In this document: positions 71 to 29,545 of the stretch, in pieces
How the letters are laid out: every line of letters starts with the position of its first letter
Position numbering within the stretch: the first letter of the stretch is position 1
Assembly (NCBI GenBank): GCA_005798335.1
Contig: SYJV01000015.1
Span: 1-33,274, forward strand
From: Planctomycetaceae bacterium
GTDB taxonomy: Bacteria > Planctomycetota > Planctomycetia > Pirellulales > Pirellulaceae
DNA length: 33,274 nucleotides
Reading direction: 5' to 3'
Program-made: the position numbers and the translations under genes
The notes under the pieces: generated by a model
Told to the model about the DNA's origin: nothing
The model's input: only the letters and a program-made list of their open reading frames with translations
Database searches by the model: none

Positions 71-2038
71 CTAGATATAGTTGAACAGCGTCAATTGATT
101 GATGTTGCCCATGAGCTGCAGCGAGGCTTGCAAGGCGGCTTGACGGGCGGTCAAATCGGATATGGTTTTGGCTAAGTCGGCGTCCAGTTCGTTGGATTCG
201 ACTTCGGTGAGCTGGATGATTTGATCGTCCGTGGTTTGCTGTGCGGAGTCGAGCGATTGTTGGCGAGCTCCCATAACTCCGCGAGCCAGTGACATGCGCA
301 ACAGGTCATCGTCGATGGCCTGAGCGATGCGTTCAATATCTTCGAAGTTGTTGGAATCGATCGCTTCTTTGAAGCGAAACAAACTGGTAAACGCTCCTTC
401 TACTTCAACGCCGCTGACGTCCGTTCCTTGAATAACACTGTTCGTGCCTGACGCAACACCAACTGCGTCGATCGAACCACGCGGTACCAGACCGAGCCCG
501 ATGGCAGCTTGACTGCCACCGGGATTGGAAACGGAAATTTGTTGCGTACCGGAGACTGCGGTCAGGACCAGACCATTGCCGGTCGTGGCAAGCGAAGCGA
601 CCACGCGCAATGCGGGCGCGAAGTTATCGACGTGGTTGTTGATTCGATCCAGCACATCACCGACTGTTTGCACACCATCCAAGTTGATTTGTAGCAGCGA
701 TCCGTCGGTGCGCGTGATGCGGAGGTCGGGACCAGTATCCGTGGTGAAAATGCCTTGCCCAAAATTCAAGTCACTGACCAGAGTGGCCGTGTCAAAGGTG
801 CGAATGCCGAGCGCCGATGCAAGATTGGAACCATTTTCTCCGATGCTCAGCGTTGTACCGCTCTCCACGCTTTGTAAAGTGAGATGTTGCCCGTTGGAGT
901 CGATTTCTGCGATGACATTAGCACCAGTTCGATGGATTCCATTGATGAGATCTTCGACCGTCGACATACCGTTGGTGGCGATGGTATAAGTGCGATTGCC
1001 TTGCTGTAGACGAAAGCTGCTGCCGATCGTAATACCGCTGCCGTCTAATAACTGACTCAGAGGCGTCGCGGGGGTAACGATGGGGTTCAGGTCGGTACCT
1101 ACGACAGGCGCGGTACTCGTGGACACTGACGTCAAAATTCCCAGTTCTGCTGCGGCGAGGCCCGCGCCGCTTTCATTGACTCGCAAAATCCCACCCAGCC
1201 CGTCGGTATAGTCGATTTGCAAGCCATTTCCAACAACGCTCACCAGCAGATCGCGAGTCCCTAAAGGTTCCGCCTCGATGGCTCGTTTGATGTCGTCCAG
1301 GGTAAACGCATTGGACAAGTCAACTTCGATCGTCGTGCTGCCATCTGATAACACAATGCCGCTCAAGTTCACACCCTGGCCGCCGTTCAATTCGGAGATA
1401 CGTGTGTTCAGCGATGGAGTTGGGTTCAGGTCTACTCTACCGACAACGCGGGAGGATCGGACACCAAAGGCATCGTTGGCCGTAATGTTGGCGGCAACCA
1501 TTGAAGCGAAGTCGGTAAACGTTTGGAGTTCGTCGCGCGTTCCAGTAAACGCGATCGAATCGGATTGAATGTCCAAAGGCGGCCGACCGACGCGCGATCC
1601 AGAGAATAAGTACTGATCGTGTAGCTTCGTATTTCCAATGTCCACTAATTTGCTGATCGCGGCGTCGATCTGCGCGAGCATCGCCTGGCGTTCCTCGGGA
1701 GAATTGGTGTTGTCCGCCGCATTAACCGTCAATCCACGCATTTCGTTGAGTATGGACTGGCTTTGTGCCAACGAAGTTTCGGACGCGGTGAGAACCGTTT
1801 GCGCGCTCTTGATATTCTCCAGCAATTGACCCTTGTACTCCAACTGGCGCTGGGCGGCCAGCGCCCGAATCGCGGCGCTGGGATCTTCGCTGGCCTTATT
1901 AATGCGGCGTCCAGTGCTGAGCTGTTCTTCCAACTTGTGGATCGCCGTCTGATCGTGATTGATTTGAAACAGCAATCGATGGCCAGCCAGCGGCTGGCTG
2001 GATCGCGATGCAATCACCGGATAGAAAGAGTCTGACAT
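71..2038 (-). CDS. flgL: Flagellar hook-associated protein 3 (FlgL), enlarged
   Basis: FlgL is the second junction protein between hook and filament, exported by the flagellar type III system. The 655-residue product has a flagellin-like N-terminal helical domain (about residues 20-150, including QLSTGRRI and SEDPSAAIRAL) and a matching C-terminal helical domain (about 545-655, ending LMGNINQLTLFNYI). Most FlgL proteins are 300-400 residues. The extra length here is a central block of three related units (about 201-302, 316-412 and 422-517). Each has a GxGVNL/GSGI-type opening, a T(V/L)xD(V/L)(I/L) helix and a closing 'LGI/LGL', which resembles the flagellin hook IN motif. It lies 30 bp downstream of flgK in the same direction, so the two are probably co-transcribed. 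No gene is certain between its stop and the window edge. Confidence 0.93.
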   Translation of the reverse strand: MSDSFYPVIASRSSQPLAGHRLLFQINHDQTAIHKLEEQLSTGRRINKASEDPSAAIRALAAQRQLEYKGQLLENIKSAQTVLTASETSLAQSQSILNEMRGLTVNAADNTNSPEERQAMLAQIDAAISKLVDIGNTKLHDQYLFSGSRVGRPPLDIQSDSIAFTGTRDELQTFTDFASMVAANITANDAFGVRSSRVVGRVDLNPTPSLNTRISELNGGQGVNLSGIVLSDGSTTIEVDLSNAFTLDDIKRAIEAEPLGTRDLLVSVVGNGLQIDYTDGLGGILRVNESGAGLAAAELGILTSVSTSTAPVVGTDLNPIVTPATPLSQLLDGSGITIGSSFRLQQGNRTYTIATNGMSTVEDLINGIHRTGANVIAEIDSNGQHLTLQSVESGTTLSIGENGSNLASALGIRTFDTATLVSDLNFGQGIFTTDTGPDLRITRTDGSLLQINLDGVQTVGDVLDRINNHVDNFAPALRVVASLATTGNGLVLTAVSGTQQISVSNPGGSQAAIGLGLVPRGSIDAVGVASGTNSVIQGTDVSGVEVEGAFTSLFRFKEAIDSNNFEDIERIAQAIDDDLLRMSLARGVMGARQQSLDSAQQTTDDQIIQLTEVESNELDADLAKTISDLTARQAALQASLQLMGNINQLTLFNYI

Positions 2039-2068
2039 GAACGATTCCCGAACCTCTCAAGATCTGTT

Positions 2069-3766
2069 TTACAAGTTGACCAAGGTCTCCAACATTTCAC
2101 TGGACGCTCGAATGACGCGGCTGCTGGCCTGGAACGCACGTTGATAGAAAATCATTTTCACGGCCTCTTCGTCCAGGTTTACGCCCGTGACGGCCAGGTG
2201 TTGTCCTTCCAGCACTTTGTAGAAATTTCTAAGTCCGTCGGTAATGCCGTTTTGAATGTTGATGTCTTGTGTCGTACTCACAACGATTGTCTCGTACCGT
2301 TGCTTGATCGATTGCCCATCCAGCGAATCCAAGGGAGCATCGAAGGCTTCGGCCAGACGCAGCGCATTATCGGTTCCGCCATCGACGCCGTTCAAACTGG
2401 CGGCAAACAGCCGATCATTTTCGATAATTTGCTCATTCACACTGATCGTGTCCGCAGACGTTCCTTGAAAGAAGGTATTGATACCTGCCGCAGCAAGAAA
2501 TCCCGAGGTGTCGTTTTGAAATGCAAATCGCGTCCGCTGCGAATCGCTGACAATTGTCAGTTTACCTTCGGGCGATACCGACGCGGAAATCCCCGAGATC
2601 GCATTGATCTGATCGCGAACATCTTCCAATGAAGTATCGTCGGATTCTCCCAACAGTCTCACGCGAATGTTGTGGGTCTTGTTCAACCCAGTTTGCCGGT
2701 CGAGTACTTCGATTTCGAACGAGCCATTTTTGATCTCACCGAACAAACCCGCCAGGTCCAATGCGGCTGAAGAATCGTCCGTAGCGTTTGTACTGGTTAC
2801 TGAGCTGAACGCTTCGAGACCCTGGCCTTGCGTGTGAATTGCGTTGAATTCTCGGATTAAGAGTTCGGCAAAGTCATCGATCTCGCCAGATTTTTCGGTC
2901 AACGTTGAAACTCGCGCATCGTAGAGTCCTCTTAACTTGCCAGAGGAGACGATCAATGGCGAGTCGGTATCCACAATGCGAATTTCCGGTGCGACCGTAC
3001 TGTCCGACGACGCCAAGGCGTAAGCCACATCTCGCTGTAGGCTGTCTGAAACTAGAAATTCGCCGCCGACAAAAATCGAAACCGATCCGTTAGATTGTTC
3101 GACGGCCCGAATGTCGACCAACGAAGCTAACTGCTGCAATGACTGATATCGCTCGTCGCGCAATCCCACAGCATCGCTTCCAAGTGTTCGTCCTCCTTCG
3201 AGCTCGATGATGCGCTGGTTGAGCGCTGCGACACTCTTGGTTAGTCGATTGATTTCGTTGGCGGTACCGCGGATTTCACCGTCCAGCTCCTGTCCGATGG
3301 ACCCCAATTGACGCTTGACGCTTGCCAGACCCCCGGCAAGTTTCTTAGCGCGCTCGATCACCAACCTTCTCAGCGACGGATTGCCGGGCTGGTTCAGTAA
3401 GTCGTGAATGCTGTTGGAGAACTCAGAAATACTCGAACTGATATCGGTGTCGGACAATTCGTTAAATACGGATTCCAAGCGATTGTAGACGTCGCCCACG
3501 GCCTCGCTGGCAGCCAATTCGCTGCCCATATCGCGCAATCGTTCAGCAACAAATGTGTCGATTTTCTGAACGACACCTACGGCGCGGACGCCGTAACCCA
3601 TGAGAACCGAACCCACCAACACCGAAGGGCCGGACGTTTGTACCAGTTCCTGCCGAATGTACCCAGGAGTATTGGCATTGGCGACATTGTTGCCGGTGAC
3701 CTGCAGACCCAGATCCGCGACCGACAAGGCATTGGCCGAATTACGAATGGCTGCAAATAGTGACAT
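2069..3766 (-). CDS. flgK: Flagellar hook-associated protein 1 (FlgK)
   Basis: FlgK is the first hook-filament junction protein. The 565-residue product begins with the rod/hook-family signature (LGLQVTGNNVANANTPGYIRQ, about residues 18-38) in which NxANxxTPGY is typical. It has a long helical region (about 80-200) and a variable beta-rich middle. It ends with the standard C-terminal motif GVNLDEEAVKMIFYQRAFQA followed by SSRVIRASSEMLETLVNL. Length is normal for the family. It sits between a FlgN-like gene (62 bp upstream) and flgL (30 bp downstream), the usual flgN-flgK-flgL order for a chaperone with its two clients. The ATG at 3766 directly begins the conserved N-terminus. Confidence 0.96.
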   Translation of the reverse strand: MSLFAAIRNSANALSVADLGLQVTGNNVANANTPGYIRQELVQTSGPSVLVGSVLMGYGVRAVGVVQKIDTFVAERLRDMGSELAASEAVGDVYNRLESVFNELSDTDISSSISEFSNSIHDLLNQPGNPSLRRLVIERAKKLAGGLASVKRQLGSIGQELDGEIRGTANEINRLTKSVAALNQRIIELEGGRTLGSDAVGLRDERYQSLQQLASLVDIRAVEQSNGSVSIFVGGEFLVSDSLQRDVAYALASSDSTVAPEIRIVDTDSPLIVSSGKLRGLYDARVSTLTEKSGEIDDFAELLIREFNAIHTQGQGLEAFSSVTSTNATDDSSAALDLAGLFGEIKNGSFEIEVLDRQTGLNKTHNIRVRLLGESDDTSLEDVRDQINAISGISASVSPEGKLTIVSDSQRTRFAFQNDTSGFLAAAGINTFFQGTSADTISVNEQIIENDRLFAASLNGVDGGTDNALRLAEAFDAPLDSLDGQSIKQRYETIVVSTTQDINIQNGITDGLRNFYKVLEGQHLAVTGVNLDEEAVKMIFYQRAFQASSRVIRASSEMLETLVNL

Positions 3767-21166: not shown

Positions 21167-21335
21167 TCCGAGATGCACTGAAATTCGCAGCCGAACAAAG
21201 GCAGAAACGTTTCCCTGCGCCCTCGCCAGATCGCCGAGCTTGTCGATACCGTCTAAAGCGCGTCCGCAAACCGTTGATTAGCATATACTAATTGCTCCAG
21301 AGTGCCAGCAAACGGTTCCAGCAGGCGAGGCGATC

Positions 21336-21891
21336 ATTCCTACAACACGATTATCACTCCTGGAGCGATTGCGGACGCCTGGCGACGGTCAGGCCTGGGG
21401 GCAGTTTGTCGATCTGTATACTCCGCTGATGATATTGTGGGCCAAGCGACTTGGATTGCAGGACGCGGACTCAGGCGATCTCGTTCAAGATGTGATGACA
21501 CAGCTCGTGCGCGCCTTTCCGAATTTCCATTACGACCAGGACGCGAGCTTTCGAGCTTGGCTCAAGACAGTGTTTCTCAATAAGCACCGCGAGATGTCGC
21601 AAACGCATACCAACCACGATCGGCGAGCCAAACATGCTCGACCAAATCGCTGCTCCGGCCGATCAGGCTGAGGAAGCTGAGGACCGCAAGTTGCTTATTC
21701 AACGCGGACTCGAATTGATTCGCGACGAATTCTCGCAATCGGTATGGGAGGCGTTTTGGCAATACGCTGTCTGTGGCCGATCACCCACCGAAGTCGCTAA
21801 CGAACTTGGCCTGCGATTGGGAACCATCTACTCGTCAAAATCCCGAGTACTCAATCGATTGCGTTTAGAAATCGGATTCGTGCCGGAGTGA
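21336..21891 (+). pseudogene. ECF-type RNA polymerase sigma factor, frameshifted and without ATG
   Basis: Two frames together make a sigma-70 family protein of about 185 residues. The first (from 21336) reads PTTRLSLLERLRTPGDGQAW, then FVDLYTPLMILWAKRL and DLVQDVMTQLVRAFPNF (region 2). The second (to 21891) carries region 4, VWEAFWQYAVCGRSPTEVAN then ELGLRLGTIYSSKSRVLNRL. The join lies near 21592-21600. Omitting one base there (for example T21597) gives ...REM-RKRIPTTIGEP... in one frame. At the expected start the codon is ATT (21336), with GCGAGG 5 bases upstream. The first in-frame usable alternative is TTG at 21369, which would remove the first helix. Two lesions suggest a pseudogene, though ATT initiation plus frameshifting, or a sequencing error, cannot be excluded. 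Confidence 0.7.
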
Positions 21892-21947: not shown

Positions 21948-22349
21948 TCAAAGCAGGTATGCTTTGAATCCCGCCTGCTCAAAGTGGTGATCGGCAGTGA
22001 ATGCGTCCTTCAATCCAAGTTCTTCCAAAGCGATTATTGAAATGCAATCGGTCAGCGACCAGTCTTTGTCGGGACGATTTTTGAATCGTGCAACACCTGC
22101 GTTGAAGAGTTCATGACTGCTCGGGAGAATCGTGGTCTGAGGGTCAGCCCGAAGGCTTCGCAATAACTCAACGAAGATTGCCCGATCACTAGCTCGTGAT
22201 AAGAAGTTGCCGGTTTCAATCAGTACATATTCTGTGGTCACGAGCGGTCCCTGATACTGGCTCGCGAGTTCCACCGCCTTGGCGTGGAGCGAGTCACGCG
22301 GACTGACCAACGCCACATAGAATGACGTGTCGGCGAAGGTAGACGTCAC
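21948..22349 (-). CDS. PIN-domain ribonuclease toxin (VapC-like)
   Basis: The 133-residue PIN domain protein has the acidic active-site set: Asp7 (FADTSFYVAL), Glu45 (VLIETGNFL), Asp96/Asp101 (KDWSLTDCIS) and Asp120 (FTADHHF). VapC-type toxins cleave RNA, often tRNA or rRNA, until blocked by their antitoxin. The start overlaps the stop of the upstream antitoxin gene by 4 bp (ATGA), the standard toxin-antitoxin arrangement. The real RNA target is unknown. Confidence 0.85.
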   Translation of the reverse strand: MTSTFADTSFYVALVSPRDSLHAKAVELASQYQGPLVTTEYVLIETGNFLSRASDRAIFVELLRSLRADPQTTILPSSHELFNAGVARFKNRPDKDWSLTDCISIIALEELGLKDAFTADHHFEQAGFKAYLL

Positions 22350-22570
22350 TGTTTTGGATGCCGATAGAGATAATGATCGATGTTGCTCGCGGCATCTGGC
22401 GGCAATCCTTGGGCTGTCCCCACAACTGATTTGAGTCGATCGAGCAATGTCGTCGGTTTTGATTCGGTTTGGCTATCGACGATCTCAACGGAGACAGCCA
22501 AGCCTTCGGTCAACGGAATGGGGTCATCAAGTACAATCACACCGTTTCGGACGTGCCCGGATACCACCAT
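22346..22570 (-). CDS. AF2212-type antitoxin of the PIN toxin
   Basis: The 74-residue product has GHVRNGVIVLDDPIPLTEGL followed by AVSVEIVD, the pattern of the AF2212/PG0164 (DUF104-like) antitoxin family, a small beta-strand DNA-binding or toxin-holding domain. The C-terminal half (LLDRLKSVVGTAQGLPPDAA) probably wraps the toxin. ATG at 22570 is preceded by AAGG at 7 bases. It is translationally coupled to the PIN gene. Such operons are usually self-repressed, but I see no clear operator. Confidence 0.75.
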   Translation of the reverse strand: MVVSGHVRNGVIVLDDPIPLTEGLAVSVEIVDSQTESKPTTLLDRLKSVVGTAQGLPPDAASNIDHYLYRHPKQ

Positions 22571-22898
22571 GACTCTACCTTGTGTTCCATTGAGTTCTTG
22601 ATTTTCAACGGCGGACGATCACCGTTAGTATGTCAACTTGTTGTTGTCGTTGGCATTCGCCTAACGATTTCAAATACGACGCAGGCAGTGAGTTGATTCT
22701 ACCTTGACTGGTCCAATATACAACTTCCTTCGAATGACAATGATCGTGGGAAATCATTTGGACGCCTGCGAGTATTGCGCGCGGCTGGCTGAGGAAACTG
22801 GATACCATCCATGGAGAAGCCAGCATCAAGCCCTCGAACGGGCCGAAAGTATCCCAAATTGCGGGACAAGATCCGCGTTGTCATCGAGTAATTCGATC
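22571..22898. other. Intergenic region between antitoxin and decayed Calx-beta/RHS locus
   Basis: I see no convincing gene here. A 26-codon ATG frame (22811-22891) encodes a very basic peptide but has no clear ribosome site or recognised domain. This stretch may be eroded coding sequence of the giant gene that follows. Confidence 0.4.
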
Positions 22899-23080
22899 AT
22901 GCCAATAACGGCGACTACGGTCGACAGCGATTACGTGGCCGTGACAAACGGGACGGTTACCTTCGGTGCTAGCTCGACAGGCAACCAGACGGGTGAATGT
23001 AGCCGTCAACGGCGACTACAGGCTGGAACTCGACGAACAACTGCAAGTCCAACCAATACTATCCGAAGCCAACAGGCGTT
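22899..23080 (+). pseudogene. Decayed Calx-beta domain split over two frames
   Basis: One frame (22899 onward) reads TTVDSDYVAVTNGTVTFGAS. A second frame (22981 onward) reads RRVNVAVNGDYRLELDEQLQ. In order these match the closing half of a Calx-beta domain, whose typical form has 'SDYVAV..GTVTF' followed by 'V.V.VNGD...ELDE.F.V'. The following RHS frame is the third frame. So a surface-protein domain has been broken by at least two shifts directly before the YD-repeat gene. Confidence 0.65.
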
Positions 23081-23089
23081 TGGAAGCGA

Positions 23090-26000
23090 TTGGAGCGCAC
23101 ACCGACGCGTCAGGAAGATGCGGCCGAACAAGTTACTGCCGTTGTCGATCAACTGAACCGGCGCACGACGTTTGCATACGATTTGCTGGGCAATCGGACT
23201 CGCATTGTCAATGCAAAAGGGGATGCGACGGCGTTTGCCTATAATGCCCGCTCGGAAGAGATCTCGACGACCGACGCTCTTGGTCGCGTCTCACGCAAAG
23301 AATATGACTTGTTGGGAAGAATCACCAAATATATCGATCCGGTTGGCAAACTAGTTCTGTTGACTTACGACGACGAAGGGAACGAATTGTCCAGGACCGA
23401 TCGCCGAGGGAACACCAAACGCTTTGAGTACGACGCTCTCAATCGCCAGACGAAATCGATGGACGAACTGGGAGGAATCACACAATTTGTATACGACTCA
23501 ACCAGTCAACAACTCTCGCAATCTGATCCGCTCGGTCGCGTAACGCGCTTCGCCTATGATGCCTTGGCACGAGTTACCTCAGCTACAGACCCAAACAATC
23601 AGGTAACGAATTTTACTCACGATCCGGTTGGCAATCTGATCCGTACGGTCGATCCTCTTGGCCGCATCGAGACGTCTGAGTACGACGGTGCGAATAGAAT
23701 TGTCAAAAGGACCGATGCACTGGGTTTTGTTTCTCGCTTCGAACACGACCTCAATGGCAACCTCGTTCGCAGCGTCGATCCGCGCGGTAACGAAACTCGC
23801 CACCAGTACGATGCGCGCGACCTGCGCACCAAGAGCACCGATGCGCTGGGTAATGTTTATGCCATTGCGTACGATGCCGCCAGCCAAGTAACCAGCCAGA
23901 CCGACGCCCTCAATCGCACGACGAACTACGTTTACGATCTGCTCGGAAATGCCATTCGCATCACCGATCCGCTCGGAAATGCGGTCAACTACGAATACGA
24001 CGCCGTGGAGAATCGCGTTCGATCCATCGATGCTCGCGGCAACATTACCATGACCGAGTATGACGCGCTCGATCGCAGCATCCGGTTGATCGATGCCTTG
24101 GGTAACGCAACCACTCTCGCTTACGACGAGAGCGGCAATCAGACCAGCGTTACCGATCGACGTGGTCATACAACTAAGTACGCGTATGACGCTCTCAATC
24201 GGCAAGTCAGCCAAACCGATGCACTTGGCAATGCGCGGCAATTGACGTACGACGCTGCCAGCCAACTGACGCGTCTGGTGAACGAAATCGGTGAGAAAAC
24301 CGACTACGTCTACGATTCTCGTGGCAACGTTACCCGTATCACCGATAACGCCGGCAACGCAACTTCTTTCGCCTATGATGCGGTATCGAATCGTGTGAGC
24401 GTAACAAACGCCAGAGGATTTGCTTCACGCGCGGAATTTGATGCACTCAATCGCCCCGTGGCCACGGTCGATGCACTGGGAGGACGAGCGACGCGAGCTT
24501 ATGACGGTTCGAGCAACTTGATCGAAGCCATTGACGAAAACGGTAATCGTACGGTATCCACATACGATGTGCTCAACCGTGTTGCGACCGTAACCGATGC
24601 GTTGGGAGGTGTAGTACGTTACGCATACGATTCCGTTGGGCAACTTCTTCGTCAGACCAATGCGCTCGGCGACAATCGCAGCTTTACTTACGACACTATT
24701 GGTAACATCGTCTCGCTGGCGGACGAGGCGGGCAATACCAGTACCAGCACGTACGATGCTACCTATAACATGATCAGTACAACGAACGCCGAGAATCACA
24801 CCACGCGGTACGAATATGACGCTCTCAATCGGCGAACCAAGTCGATCGATGCACGAGGCAAAACCAGTCTCATAGCCTATGATGCGGAGGGCAATCAAGT
24901 TTCCTTTACCGATCCTCGCGGCAATACGACCCGAACGGAATACGATCAACTCAACCGAGCGTTTCGTTCGATCGACGCCGCCGGTGGTATCAGCTCGCAA
25001 ACGTTCGACGGGCTCGACAGAGTTTTGACTGCGACTGATGCTCTCGGCCGGGTTTCCAAGTTGACTTACGACGTCTTTGGCAATCCGCTAACGCAAACCG
25101 ACGCTCTCAATCAAGTGACGAACTTTACTTACGACACACTGGGTAATCGCATCTCGGTCACCGATCCGCTTGGTAGAAAAATAGAGTTTTCTTATGACGG
25201 CAATGACCGGCTAGCACGGACGACGGATCCGCTAGGGCGCACGACCGATCGAAATTACGACGCGAAAGGCAATGTTGTCGCGGTCACTGATCCACTGGGA
25301 GGTGTTGCGCGCACGACCTTCGATGCACTGGATCGAGTCACGCGGATTGTCGACGCGGCTGGAGGAACTACCACGCGGACGTACAACGCCGTTGGATTCC
25401 TGCTGTCGCGAACCGACGCTCGCGGAGCGGCATTTCAATTTACCTACGATCCGGTGGGAAACATTTTAACGGCGACGGACGCACTGGGTCGAATCACTCG
25501 CTTTGCATACAACAAGGTTTACAGCCAGTTACAAGCGACCGACGCATTGGGGCAAATTACTCGCAACGAATACGACGAACTCCAGCGACGAATTCGATCG
25601 ATCGATGAACGCGGTTTTGCGACAAACTACGCGTATGATGATAACGGTAACCTGCTGACGATCACCGATGCATTAGGAAACGCCACTAGTTACGTTTACG
25701 ATACGCTCAATCGGCAGGTCAGCGAAACGAACGCTCTGGGCAAGATCCGTGCGTTTACATACGACGCAGTGGGCAACGTAACGGCTCGGACGGATCGTCT
25801 CGGTCGGCGCATCGAGTTTACTCACGACGCTCTCAATCGTCAGGTCGCTGAAAAGTGGTTTAACCCGGGTTCGGCCACACCGGTCAATACAATCACCAGC
25901 ACGTTCGACTCCGCCGGTCAGTTGACGACGATTGCGGATGTTAACTCCAACTTTAGTTATACATATTCCAATGCGGGCGAGCGTACCAGCGTTTCCAACG

Positions 26001-27811
26001 CGGGAACTCCGAATCTACCGACCGTGGTCATGGAGTTTGCCTTCGACGCGCGCGGCAGCGCGGTCAAAATGACTGAAAAGATCAACGGAACTACGGGCGC
26101 GGTCACCGACTACGTGCGTGATGTGCTGAGTCGAGTTACGCGAATGACTCAGACCGGCACCGGAGTGACTACCAAGCGAGTTGACTTGGGGTACGATCCG
26201 CTGGGCTTGTTAACCTCGGTAGATCGCTTCAGCGATGCCGCCGGTAACAGCAGTGTGGCCAAGAGCAGTATCAACTACGATCTGGTTGGCGAAACCACCA
26301 ACATCCTTCACCAACGCGGCACTACGACGATCAACCAGTTCACCAACACGTTTGACAACCTCGGTCGGTTGACTCAGCAAAGCTCTAACGATGGTTCGAA
26401 CAGTTTCACGTATGACGCCACCAGCCAACTCGTCAGCTCCGATTTCGCCAACCAGCCGGACGAATCGTTTTCTTACGACGCAACGGGGAATCGCACTGGC
26501 GGCGGCAACACGGTTGGGACGAACAATCGTCAGTTGTCCGATGGCGCGTTTAATTACGAATACGATGATGAAGGAAATCGCATTCGCAGAACGGAAATAG
26601 CCACCGGTACAATGACGGAATATGGTTACGACCATCGCAATCGAATGATTTCGATGACGATTCGAGATTCGGCTGGCACCGTCCGCACGCAAGCGGCGTA
26701 TACCTACGACGTCTTCAATCGGCGCATGGCCAAGCGAGTCGACGCGGACGGTGCCGGTCCGCAAACTGCCACGACCACGCAGTTCATCCACAACGACGAT
26801 CAGATCGTATTGACCTTTGACGGCTCGGGCAATCAAACTCGCCGCGTTCTATCGGGAACGGTGATCGACCAGGTCTTTGCCGAGGAAACGCCAAGCGGCA
26901 CGCTATGGTCACTGGTCGACGAGTTGGGGAGCGTTCGTGACTTGGTCGATAACAGTGGCAACCTCGTCGACCATCACGTATTTTCCAGCTTCGGCGAGAT
27001 CACGTCGCAGACTGGTCCGTCGGTTGATCATCTGTTCAGCTTTACTGGCCGCGAGCTGGATGCCGAGAGTGGATTGTATTATTTCCGCAATCGTTACTTC
27101 GACTCCAAAGCCGGTCGATTCATCAGTGAAGATCCCAGTGGATTTGCTGGCGGCGACACGAATCTCAATCGGTATGTCGGTAACAACCCAACAAACGCCA
27201 CTGATCCACTTGGGTTGGCTGAGAGCAACTTGGTTCAAATCTTTAATGACCCAAAAGCGCTGGCCAGAGCGGGTGAATTAATTCAGCATCGCATAATTCT
27301 CGCGGACAGACTCGAAGCAACTGGACTGACCCAAGTTGGGATCCAAGAGTTGCTAAAGAAACTTGATGACCTGATTGTCGCTAATAGATTCAGCGATGCA
27401 CAGCACGAGCTCGACACAAAAAAATTCATAGTTGAAATTATAAAAAAACAACAAGAAGATACTGAGGACTTGGAGCAAGGTTATATTCGCAGTCGAAACA
27501 GATATGTTCGAAAAGCGGAAGCCAGGGCGAAAGAGTTGCAGAGAGCCACTGATGTTGCCAGCTTGGGAGATAACAGCAGTAATCGAATCGTCGCGGATGG
27601 CGGAGGAGACGGAGGCGGCGGTGGCCCAGGCTTCGGTGGTGGACAAGCAATTGGAATCGTTCAGGTTGACGGCGAGCAACAGCAGAACCAAGCGCAGGGC
27701 GACCTTCATTTGACGCCAGAGAAAGCGAAACAACTTGAGCGCGACAATTTGCTGGTTGATATTGAGTCCAGTAAAGCACGATTGGCGAATGAACAAGCGA
27801 TTGAGGAATGA
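23090..27811 (+). CDS. Giant YD-repeat / RHS protein, N-terminus lost, ends at in-frame TGA
   Basis: The 1,573-residue frame has no ATG before codon 124; a TTG lies at 23090 and a stop at 23000. From about residue 16 to 920 I count 43 regular 21-residue YD repeats of the form TDALGNxTxxxYDALNRxxS. More degenerate repeats follow to about 1270. The RHS-associated core (about 1276-1376) includes DELGSVRDLVDNSG, FTGRELDAESGLYYFRNRY, and the closing GGDTNLNRYVGNNPTNATDP with LGL. RHS proteins form a hollow shell that encloses a variable C-terminal domain, often a toxin. Here the tail (about 1377-1573) is hydrophilic and helical, with a Gly-rich linker near 1505. It matches no domain I know. The TGA at 27809 interrupts a coiled coil that continues in the same frame. 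It is probably a degraded gene, but the long open frame suggests recent loss. Confidence 0.82.
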   Translation: MERTPTRQEDAAEQVTAVVDQLNRRTTFAYDLLGNRTRIVNAKGDATAFAYNARSEEISTTDALGRVSRKEYDLLGRITKYIDPVGKLVLLTYDDEGNELSRTDRRGNTKRFEYDALNRQTKSMDELGGITQFVYDSTSQQLSQSDPLGRVTRFAYDALARVTSATDPNNQVTNFTHDPVGNLIRTVDPLGRIETSEYDGANRIVKRTDALGFVSRFEHDLNGNLVRSVDPRGNETRHQYDARDLRTKSTDALGNVYAIAYDAASQVTSQTDALNRTTNYVYDLLGNAIRITDPLGNAVNYEYDAVENRVRSIDARGNITMTEYDALDRSIRLIDALGNATTLAYDESGNQTSVTDRRGHTTKYAYDALNRQVSQTDALGNARQLTYDAASQLTRLVNEIGEKTDYVYDSRGNVTRITDNAGNATSFAYDAVSNRVSVTNARGFASRAEFDALNRPVATVDALGGRATRAYDGSSNLIEAIDENGNRTVSTYDVLNRVATVTDALGGVVRYAYDSVGQLLRQTNALGDNRSFTYDTIGNIVSLADEAGNTSTSTYDATYNMISTTNAENHTTRYEYDALNRRTKSIDARGKTSLIAYDAEGNQVSFTDPRGNTTRTEYDQLNRAFRSIDAAGGISSQTFDGLDRVLTATDALGRVSKLTYDVFGNPLTQTDALNQVTNFTYDTLGNRISVTDPLGRKIEFSYDGNDRLARTTDPLGRTTDRNYDAKGNVVAVTDPLGGVARTTFDALDRVTRIVDAAGGTTTRTYNAVGFLLSRTDARGAAFQFTYDPVGNILTATDALGRITRFAYNKVYSQLQATDALGQITRNEYDELQRRIRSIDERGFATNYAYDDNGNLLTITDALGNATSYVYDTLNRQVSETNALGKIRAFTYDAVGNVTARTDRLGRRIEFTHDALNRQVAEKWFNPGSATPVNTITSTFDSAGQLTTIADVNSNFSYTYSNAGERTSVSNAGTPNLPTVVMEFAFDARGSAVKMTEKINGTTGAVTDYVRDVLSRVTRMTQTGTGVTTKRVDLGYDPLGLLTSVDRFSDAAGNSSVAKSSINYDLVGETTNILHQRGTTTINQFTNTFDNLGRLTQQSSNDGSNSFTYDATSQLVSSDFANQPDESFSYDATGNRTGGGNTVGTNNRQLSDGAFNYEYDDEGNRIRRTEIATGTMTEYGYDHRNRMISMTIRDSAGTVRTQAAYTYDVFNRRMAKRVDADGAGPQTATTTQFIHNDDQIVLTFDGSGNQTRRVLSGTVIDQVFAEETPSGTLWSLVDELGSVRDLVDNSGNLVDHHVFSSFGEITSQTGPSVDHLFSFTGRELDAESGLYYFRNRYFDSKAGRFISEDPSGFAGGDTNLNRYVGNNPTNATDPLGLAESNLVQIFNDPKALARAGELIQHRIILADRLEATGLTQVGIQELLKKLDDLIVANRFSDAQHELDTKKFIVEIIKKQQEDTEDLEQGYIRSRNRYVRKAEARAKELQRATDVASLGDNSSNRIVADGGGDGGGGGPGFGGGQAIGIVQVDGEQQQNQAQGDLHLTPEKAKQLERDNLLVDIESSKARLANEQAIEE
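27809..27811 (+). other. In-frame TGA splitting the RHS C-terminal region
   Basis: The codons before the stop read NEQAIEE and those after it read NRKKLENSQLERFRNA, then the ATG at 27860, all in one frame. Both sides are charged helix with heptad character. A single-base change (for example from CGA, GGA or TGG) explains the stop. Confidence 0.7.
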
Positions 27812-27859
27812 AACCGGAAAAAGCTAGAAAATTCGCAACTGGAAAGGTTCCGCAATGCC

Positions 27860-29044
27860 ATGCGGCAAGAGGAATTGAAACAACAGCTCGAACAATTGGT
27901 GGCGGCTAATGCTCCAGGGTTTTTTAGTTTTCCTGGTCTGACGGCACTGTTTATCGATCCATTCACTAAAGGAATTCAGTTAGAGACATTGGACGAAAGA
28001 AATGCACGCATTCGTCGCGAAATGAGAGCCACATTCGGCGAGGTAGCGGACGATATCGCTCATCTATTGGTTCCTTTTTACACAACGGTTCGAAAACTGT
28101 CATCTGATTGCCCTGGGGATCGGTTGACCATCGAGGACTTGTTATTCGACACACTTGCCCGATACGCTACGGTCCGGTACGGCCAGCATCTTAAGCAGGT
28201 CGCAAAGGGAACCCCTCGCCGGGTAGAAACGATCAATGGTAAAAAATACTTTAACGGCAAACCTGTCACTCCAAAAATTCAATCCATTCTCAACGAATTG
28301 GACGAGTTGGAAGCAGCCGCCCGCCGCAAACGAAAAAATGAAGGAGAAATCGCCAGAGACCTTGAATTTGATTCCAAACAAGTGAGCAAGTTGGAACAGG
28401 AATTGGCAAGAAACATCGAGGAAGGTAAGAAGAAGTTCGGCGATGACCAGCAAGTACAGAACGCAATCGACGATGCACAACAACAAGTTAAAGACCCGAT
28501 GAAAGAAGCTCGAGCGAAATACCTGGAACAGGAACGGCTCAAGAAAGATCAGCGGGCTCAAGAGGATCAAGCCATACTGGACGAATATCAAGCGAAGGGA
28601 TTCAATAATTTCCAGGAAGTCCAAAAGGCCTTGATTGAGCAAAAGGTGCTCGATGATGCGGATCCCGCATTTAAAGATTCGCCAGCGCAAAAGAAGCTTG
28701 ACCAAGAAATCGCAGATGCGAAGAAAGCCAAAAAGGACCAAGCGTTTCAAGACCATTTGAACAAGAAAGTCCCAATTCCAGACATAGTCGACGAATTGGC
28801 CAGAGCGGCCAACGAAGGAAACTTGGCGGAATTCACCAGGAGCGCTAAAGTCGTCGAAGACATTCGTATTCTGAATCGAGTAGTCACTCCGCTGGTCGAG
28901 CAATTCGGTGCCAGTGCCAAGGACATAGGCACTGCCATGCGCCAAATCGCCAACGAAAAGTTTGGTGGAAACCTAGTCGAAGCCGCCCTTAAAGACCCCG
29001 ACGGCATCGCCTTGCGGTATTTCCGAAACCGACAAAAGCAGTGA
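27860..29044 (+). CDS. Coiled-coil protein in frame with the RHS tail (unknown function)
   Basis: The 394-residue frame directly follows the RHS TGA without frame change. Residues 1-150 are mixed (APGFFSFPGLTALFIDPFTK, then a helical region with TIEDLLFDTLARYATVRYGQ). Residues 150-300 are a long highly charged coiled coil (KNEGEIARDLEFDSKQVSKL and similar). The end (about 310-394) is helical: VPIPDIVDELARAANEGNLA. There is no signal peptide and no recognised toxin motif. A ribosome site before ATG 27860 is weak (GGAAAGG lies 19 bases upstream). I infer it is the C-terminal part of the original RHS protein, either cut off by mutation or made separately. It could instead be an independent gene. 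Confidence 0.6.
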   Translation: MRQEELKQQLEQLVAANAPGFFSFPGLTALFIDPFTKGIQLETLDERNARIRREMRATFGEVADDIAHLLVPFYTTVRKLSSDCPGDRLTIEDLLFDTLARYATVRYGQHLKQVAKGTPRRVETINGKKYFNGKPVTPKIQSILNELDELEAAARRKRKNEGEIARDLEFDSKQVSKLEQELARNIEEGKKKFGDDQQVQNAIDDAQQQVKDPMKEARAKYLEQERLKKDQRAQEDQAILDEYQAKGFNNFQEVQKALIEQKVLDDADPAFKDSPAQKKLDQEIADAKKAKKDQAFQDHLNKKVPIPDIVDELARAANEGNLAEFTRSAKVVEDIRILNRVVTPLVEQFGASAKDIGTAMRQIANEKFGGNLVEAALKDPDGIALRYFRNRQKQ

Positions 29045-29545
29045 GGAATGAGACTGGAGGCTGGAGACTGGAGTTTGAGTCTGAAATCTGAAAATTGAAA
29101 TCTGAATCTGAAATTTGATATTGATTTCTGGAGTAGTTTGGAGTTTAGAAAAATCCCGATGGGACGAAAGCGAGCTAAGAGCTGGATAGATTGATAAGTG
29201 GTTTGTTCGGTACCAACTCGCTTAGTACTCCAAATGAGAAAGTTGGTTGGTAACGCCCCGTAGGGCGCCAAATGGGAGAACGGGTTGGTGTCGCATGATG
29301 CCCCGTAGGACGCCAAATGAGATAATCGTTCGTACAACCAACACGATGCGCATCGAATGCGCCACGCCACTAGTGCCAAACAGAGTCGAGCAAACAAGCG
29401 TAAAACAAGCGCGAGGTAAATGCGAGTTACGATATTTAGGAAAGAGAGGCGGTTCTGCGATCAAAGCAGAGCCGGTAACACGTACAAACCCCAACGTCTA
29501 AATTTCCCTGAAACACTCAAGTCGAAGGCCAAGTAGCGTGTTACA
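29045..29545. other. Repeat-rich intergenic region
   Basis: There is no convincing gene in this 501-bp stretch. It begins with short-period low-complexity sequence (about 29050-29150, alternating GGAGACTGGAG-type and AATCTGAAAT-type units). It then holds imperfect direct repeats at about 29229-29322. Minus-strand frames over the repeats encode only repeated SHLAPYGAL-like peptides and are probably artefacts. Confidence 0.6.
29229..29322. repeat. Imperfect direct repeats containing GCCCCGTAGG
   Basis: Units at 29255-29277 and 29300-29322 match over 23 bases with two differences (GCCCCGTAGGGCGCCAAATG against GCCCCGTAGGACGCCAAATG, then GGA or AGA). A third, partial unit at about 29229-29239 (CTCCAAATGAG) precedes them. 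The two clear units are 45 bp apart. Confidence 0.7.

What the first reader, a model, noticed from the sequence alone, without database searches (positions are those of the whole stretch)
23003..29044. One giant RHS gene probably split by an in-frame TGA, with an unrecognised C-terminal region
The YD-repeat frame and the 394-residue coiled-coil frame are in the same frame with only a TGA and 16 codons before the next ATG. The helical, charged character runs across the stop. Together they would make about 2,000 residues: 43 regular repeats, an RHS core and a C-terminal region of roughly 600 residues that fits no toxin family I know. This could be a new RHS cargo with a long coiled coil, or a recently inactivated one. 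No immunity-like gene follows.
Basis: partly seen in the sequence, partly recalled or inferred. Interest (0 to 1): 0.72.

Follow-up and report, generated by a model that had tools for sequence, protein, structure and literature searches.

The report
Truncated RHS gene, stop-split helical tail
A large repeat-rich surface-protein gene of a planctomycete-like bacterium seems to have lost its front end and carries a premature-looking stop inside a long helical tail for which no relative was found; it is most likely a recently dead member of a common family.

Summary
An RHS frame (23003-27811) has 43 uninterrupted 21-residue repeats, a core and PxxxxDPxGL, then 197 largely helical residues and a TGA. 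A 410-codon frame in the same register follows (first ATG 27860).

My reading is a recently broken RHS gene whose private helical tail was one frame across the TGA. Evidence: the best-matching paralogue in the same genome (C147, 57% identical core) has a 489-residue helical tail in one frame. The 16 codons after the TGA are unusually helical and polar. Among other RHS loci whose same-frame run after the stop could be seen whole, the longest of 46 is 265 codons.

Paralogues C93 and C147 carry long export and adhesion regions there.

Neither tail piece has a convincing relative in the collections searched. That is not exceptional: the C147 tail is equally private. Direct proof of one ancestral frame is missing because no homologue spans the stop. 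A separate downstream gene in the immunity position remains a live rival. Interest is modest: a decaying new member of a known kind.

The parts
22922..23046 (+). Remnant of a Calx-beta-like domain, continued in a different frame after a one-base gap; possible relic of the lost front part or of a neighbouring gene
   Evidence: 71% DNA identity over 125 aligned positions (89 of 125, one gap) to G000:C95; that C95 frame scores Calx-beta E 4.9e-05, below the curated cut-off, while the two 30-residue window pieces alone match nothing in Pfam
23003..27811 (+). RHS frame with stop (1602 codons open); only ATG/GTG/TTG start before the repeats is TTG 23090, first ATG 23459
23177..25885 (+). 43 YD repeats of 21 residues in unbroken register
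26984..27217 (+). RHS-associated core ending in PTNATDPLGL, which fits the PxxxxDPxGL autocleavage motif
27212..27808 (+). Tail 1 as searched: 199 residues, beginning with the last two residues of DPLGL; mainly helical in a low-confidence model, with a glycine-rich linker; no convincing relative
27809..27811 (+). TGA stop in the RHS frame
27812..27859 (+). 16 same-frame codons between the TGA and the next ATG; strongly helical and polar
27860..29044 (+). Second frame with stop: 394 residues, helical and charged, coiled-coil-like; no convincing relative

Best explanation
This is the remnant of a giant extracellular RHS (YD-repeat) protein gene of a planctomycete-like bacterium. Its ancestor had an export and adhesion front part, a YD shell, a self-cleaving core and a private helical C-terminal tail of roughly 600 residues. 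Two lesions now mark it: the front part is gone (deletion and frame decay upstream of 23090), and a TGA cuts the tail after about 200 residues. Shown here: the frame, the stop, the lack of an ATG or front domains before the repeats, the paralogue with a comparable one-frame helical tail, and the absence of tail relatives in what was searched. Inferred: that the tail was one frame across the TGA (about 0.75), that the gene no longer works (about 0.7), and that the tail acted as a coiled-coil extension or cargo released by core self-cleavage. If dead, it died recently, since the RHS frame and second frame carry one stop and no visible frame break.
For: The best-scoring core relative in 98 genomes, G000:C147 (57% identity), is an uninterrupted 4050-codon frame with a planctomycete export motif (below the curated cut-off), a dockerin and FG-GAP repeats before its main repeats, and a 489-residue helical, charged tail in one frame. 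On a simple helix-and-polarity measure the C147 tail scores 0.65, tail 1 of the window 0.66 (0.68 as counted in the census) and the second frame 0.60; the highest of the other 57 tails is 0.48 (seven of the tails are cut at 500 residues). Long one-frame tails are not rare: 13 of 58 other loci have 430 residues or more. The gap codons are as helical and polar as the most extreme 6% of the second frame. Codon-position composition is alike on both sides of the TGA. Of 50 other RHS loci with a stop in view, 46 show the whole same-frame run after it: median 14.5 codons, 2 of 100 or more, longest 265; the window has 410. Front loss: no ATG before 23459, 14 stops in the three frames of 22600-23100, and a frame-broken Calx-beta-like remnant. 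A neighbouring sigma-factor gene at 21300-21890 also looks frame-broken.
Against: No homologue spans the TGA, so continuity is indirect. Tail 1 alone (198 residues as counted in the census) is an ordinary length: of 50 others with a stop in view, 19 are shorter and 2 equal, median 240. Tail 1 and the second frame share no significant sequence with each other or with the C147 tail. The repeat array is perfectly preserved, which suggests recent or present function. One upstream frame stays open for 150 codons from TTG 22704 to 23156, so upstream decay is not equally clear in every frame. The TGA could be an assembly error; no reads are available. The Calx-beta-like remnant may belong to another gene; none of the 5 RHS paralogue frames scanned, one of them only the front part of C152, has that domain. 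4 of the 50 same-frame runs are cut off by the end of the stretch, one of them at 154 codons.
Confidence: 0.6

Rival explanations
1. Two genes: the RHS protein really ends at 27811 with a roughly 200-residue cargo, and the 394-residue frame is a separate gene 48 bases downstream in the position of an immunity or partner gene.
For: Position and strand fit; [quoted passage not shown] Tail 1 length is ordinary. A GGAAAGG stretch ends 12 bases before ATG 27860.
Against: 394 coiled-coil-rich residues do not fit the 'small single domain' immunity proteins described in that passage; the gap is stop-free in frame and coil-like; no convincing relative of it was found in any genome searched; no promoter-like site in 27500-29545 beyond the shuffled expectation (1 found, mean 1.4, and it lies at 29095; the scan covers sigma-70 types only).
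Confidence: 0.2
2. The stop is leaky or recoded (read-through, or selenocysteine at TGA), giving a short and a long product.
For: A SelB-type factor is encoded in the genome (302 bits, above the 242 cut-off), so TGA decoding machinery may be present; both frames look maintained.
Against: The TGA region folds no better than shuffles (z -0.75, 43 of 200 at least as stable); no Rfam match at gathering score in the window; I recall no selenocysteine in such a polar helix; the front end seems lost anyway. SelA and the selenocysteine tRNA were not looked for.
Confidence: 0.05
3. Assembly artefact: the TGA, or the junction near 23050, is a consensus or joining error in a fragmented assembly, and the organism has an intact gene.
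For: 558 contigs; other frame breaks within about 6 kb upstream.
Against: A lone substitution error giving a stop is rare in polished assemblies (general knowledge); the upstream remnant is widely diverged from its C95 relative, as in true decay.
Confidence: 0.12

Closest known systems
Giant planctomycete-type extracellular RHS/YD proteins (paralogue G000:C147, also C93)
   Same: YD array, RHS core, DPxGL end, a private C-terminal tail; C147 has a long helical tail
   Different: The window copy lacks the long front part and has a TGA within its helical region
RHS polymorphic toxins (T6SS RhsA, Tse5, Tse15)
   Same: Core matches chains of solved structures (8cp6 Tse5 E 2.8e-23, 7q97 Rhs family protein 3.2e-22); PxxxxDPxGL present
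   Different: No Pfam PAAR match, no recognised toxin domain, no recognised immunity gene; the combined tail would be far larger than the roughly 15-30 kDa cargo described in PMC8765631 (passages seen)
Teneurins
   Same: Core matches teneurin-like protein (E 2.9e-12) and teneurin-2 (best E 3.7e-06)
   Different: No other teneurin domain was matched in the window frame by Pfam

Membership tests
RHS/YD-repeat protein | YD repeat array and RHS-associated core | tested here: met
RHS/YD-repeat protein | PxxxxDPxGL at core end | tested here: met
   PTNATDPLGL at 27188; motif definition from a passage of PMC8765631
RHS polymorphic toxin | Recognisable C-terminal toxin domain | tested here: not met
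   No Pfam match above cut-off and no NCBIfam, PADLOC or PHROGs match at E 0.1 for either tail piece
RHS polymorphic toxin | Adjacent immunity gene | tested here: inconclusive
   The only close downstream frame is the 394-residue one; no family
RHS polymorphic toxin | Delivery or export part at the N-terminus | tested here: not met
   No ATG before 23459, and the repeats begin about 30 residues after TTG 23090; no signal-peptide predictor was available
Intact extracellular RHS gene of this lineage | Export motif, adhesion domains and one frame to the C-terminus | tested here: not met
   Present in C93 and C147 (the planctomycete export motif is below its curated cut-off in both), absent here
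Selenoprotein | SECIS-like stem-loop just after TGA | tested here: inconclusive
   No stability beyond shuffles and no Rfam match at gathering score

The most novel reading that the evidence does not exclude
The gene is still expressed and the TGA is partly read through, so that one locus makes an RHS shell with a short private tail and a longer form ending in a roughly 600-residue coiled-coil stalk: a new class of non-enzymatic RHS tail, with C147 as its intact counterpart.
Probability: 0.06. Interest if true: 0.55.

Novelty: new member of a known kind. Interest (0 to 1): 0.3.

Why it matters
It suggests how fast RHS tails turn over: two paralogues in one genome share a core but carry long helical tails with no detectable sequence in common and none found elsewhere. 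Long coiled-coil tails are not the enzyme cargo usually discussed for RHS proteins, so the uninterrupted C147 copy is the better object of study than the broken one here.

Tried and rejected
Relatives of the tails. The second frame was searched in 197 relatives (E limit 0.001), 392 genomes of the phylum and 241 of the family (E limit 0.01). Beyond itself it gave 0, 1 and 2 weak hits, at E 0.002-0.008. Tail 1 was searched in 197 relatives (limit 0.001) and 241 of the family (limit 0.01): 1 and 17 weak hits, the one being among the 17, best E 3.3e-4. In several of these searches the tool scored only part of its first-look candidates per genome (for example 4 and 7), so a miss is possible. I rejected the weak hits as composition matches. 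The frames around the and one search hits (L003, L004) were read and are not RHS; L003 shares coil and a glycine-rich stretch. 11 weak-hit loci were scanned for YD motifs and none had more than one in a frame; L004 was not in that scan, and 8 weak hits gave no locus and were not inspected. Scans of genome contigs with each piece and of viral contigs with the second frame found none; these use six short peptides and reach only close relatives. tblastn of the second frame in plasmids and phages found none; tail 1 was not run there, nor in viral contigs.

Pfam SLIDE (E 6.3e-05) and DUF3461 for the second frame, and YxzE for tail 1, are below their curated cut-offs; with PDB keratin hits at E 0.006-0.3 I read them as coiled coil or composition only. 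ULD_2 and PADLOC hits inside the YD array were taken as chance or repeat matches.

Structure: both AlphaFold2 models from single sequences are poor (mean pLDDT 47.2 for core end plus tail 1, 49.3 for the second frame). They show mostly helix in the tails, but confidence is too low, so no fold search was made. Synonymous codon scores did not separate true from shifted or reverse frames and are not used as evidence.

A first tail census read minus-strand loci in the wrong direction and is discarded; one search replaces it, and recounts it. The census covers 59 loci including the window, out of many more RHS matches for which no locus was given; loci that repeat a gene were dropped. 50 others had a stop in view; 8 ran off the stretch and were left out of the medians. 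My first count, that none of 50 had a same-frame run of 400 codons, was not a fair test, because only about 500 codons after the core are in view; one search counts the 46 runs that end in view.

Full report
The window is contig C74 of an 8.46 Mb genome in 558 contigs. A planctomycete origin is inferred from weak planctomycete extracellular export motifs in two RHS paralogues (E 0.005 and 0.0009, both below cut-off); no name is given.

Observation. The RHS frame opens at 23003 after TAG 23000 and ends with TGA at 27809-27811. The same register stays open from 27812 to the stop ending at 29044, with the first ATG at 27860. In the part read from TTG 23090, 43 repeat units lie exactly 21 residues apart from residue 30 to 912. 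Pfam RHS_repeat (E 6.4e-177) and the RHS core model (E 7.3e-21) match. The core matches chains of solved Rhs structures, best Tse5 at E 2.8e-23, and ends in PTNATDPLGL, which fits the PxxxxDPxGL autocleavage motif (motif from passages of PMC8765631).

The 5' end seems lost. The only ATG, GTG or TTG before the repeats is TTG 23090; the first ATG is 23459, inside the array. I see no export signal before the array, but no predictor was run. Paralogue frames in the same genome are 4136 (C93) and 4050 (C147) codons long. Before their best RHS_repeat stretches (residue 3073 and 2132) they carry a planctomycete export motif (below cut-off) and dockerin, with beta-helix and Ig-like regions in C93 and FG-GAP repeats in C147. 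Upstream of the window array, 22600-23100 has 5, 6 and 3 stops in its three frames. The third frame is open from TTG 22704 to 23156 and matches no Pfam family. The stretch 22922-23046 is 71% identical in DNA to C95, where the matching frame scores as Calx-beta (E 4.9e-05, below cut-off). The alignment needs a one-base gap, so the window remnant is split over two frames. Whether this remnant belonged to the RHS gene is not shown: none of five RHS paralogue frames scanned has the domain.

One frame or two. The best-scoring core relative in 98 genomes is the paralogue C147 (57% identity). After its DPFGL end it has a 489-residue, helical, charged tail in a single frame. By a simple helix-and-polarity measure, tail 1 of the window (0.66), the C147 tail (0.65) and the second frame (0.60) lead the list; the highest of the other 57 tails is 0.48. 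The 16 codons between TGA and ATG are extreme on the same kind of measure: 0 of 1975 overlapping 16-mers from stretches taken as intergenic and 2 of 8279 stop-free shuffles reach it. This score was chosen after seeing the peptide. Among 50 other RHS loci with a visible stop, 46 show the complete same-frame run after it: median 14.5 codons, 2 of 100 or more, longest 265; the other 4 are cut off by the end of the stretch. The window has 410. One-frame tails of 430 residues or more occur in 13 of 58 other loci. Against this, tail 1 alone has an ordinary length: 19 of 50 others are shorter, 2 equal, median 240. The tails share no significant sequence with each other or with C147. I put one ancestral frame at about 0.75.

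Age. Between the window and C147, 475 aligned codons of repeats and core differ at 36%, 30% and 60% of first, second and third positions, as expected of a lineage long under protein-level selection. In the RHS frame and the second frame, about 2.9% and 4.2% of possible single substitutions (transitions weighted double) would make a stop. By my arithmetic, 1% neutral divergence over these 5.9 kb would give about two stops. One stop and no visible frame break therefore mean that decay of this part, if any, is recent. The upstream remnant looks older. The array may have been brought next to old remnant sequence by a recent deletion or rearrangement; this is inference.

Orphan status. Neither tail piece has a convincing relative in 197 relatives or 241 family genomes; the second frame also has none in 392 genomes of the phylum, plasmids, phages or a viral-contig pattern scan, and pattern scans of genome contigs with each piece found none. 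The C147 tail is equally alone: found in 1 of 241 family genomes, its own. So private tails are probably usual here, and the tail is not evidence for a new toxin family. Tail pieces match no toxin or immunity family. PDB sequence hits for the second frame are keratin coils at E 0.006 or weaker.

Mechanism. An intact ancestor would have been exported, displayed a YD shell, and self-cleaved after DPLGL. The cargo of known Rhs cocoons is about 15-30 kDa (PMC8765631 passages). By my arithmetic a 600-residue coiled coil would exceed that, so I think it lay outside the shell as a stalk or partner-binding extension. This is inference, not tested.

Read-through. A SelB-type factor is present, but the TGA context has no unusual structure and no Rfam hit. 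I rate recoding at 0.05.

Literature. Five library searches were made. The three that paired planctomycete terms with RHS terms returned 2, 1 and 2 papers. PMC3482391 was seen in passages only; it describes C-terminal diversity by cassette recombination and adjacent immunity genes. PMC8765631 was seen in passages only; the other papers only as listings. I saw no paper on this locus in those searches.

Verdict. The locus is best read as a recently broken, front-truncated member of a well-known protein kind.

Noticed in passing
window 21300-21890: An ECF-type sigma factor appears frame-broken: Sigma70 region 2 in one frame (E 2.4e-09) and a plausible C-terminal half in the next frame, though the latter alone gives no Pfam match.
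   Followed up: partly
window 21948-22620, minus strand: PIN-domain protein (E 1.9e-08) with a small upstream frame, resembling a VapBC-type pair by position; the upstream frame was not scanned.
   Followed up: partly
L019 5950-13839 (G000:C239): A 2630-residue SpvB/TcdB-type RHS gene (Pfam SpvB E 6.8e-112) in the same genome; described only.
   Followed up: no
G035, G135, G140, G010 (rows): Many short RHS-core frames close together on single contigs, like arrays of displaced RHS ends.
   Followed up: no
L020/L021 (G000:C152): A 9199-codon open frame with RHS core and a tail of about 1,476 residues, the longest of the 8 paralogue tails measured.
   Followed up: no
window 29045-29140: Low-complexity run of near-repeats (tctgaaatctgaaa-like) just after the second frame's stop.
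   Followed up: no
window 71-3766, minus strand: Flagellin (Flagellin_N E 2.5e-18) and FlgK-like genes, so the organism is probably flagellated.
   Followed up: no
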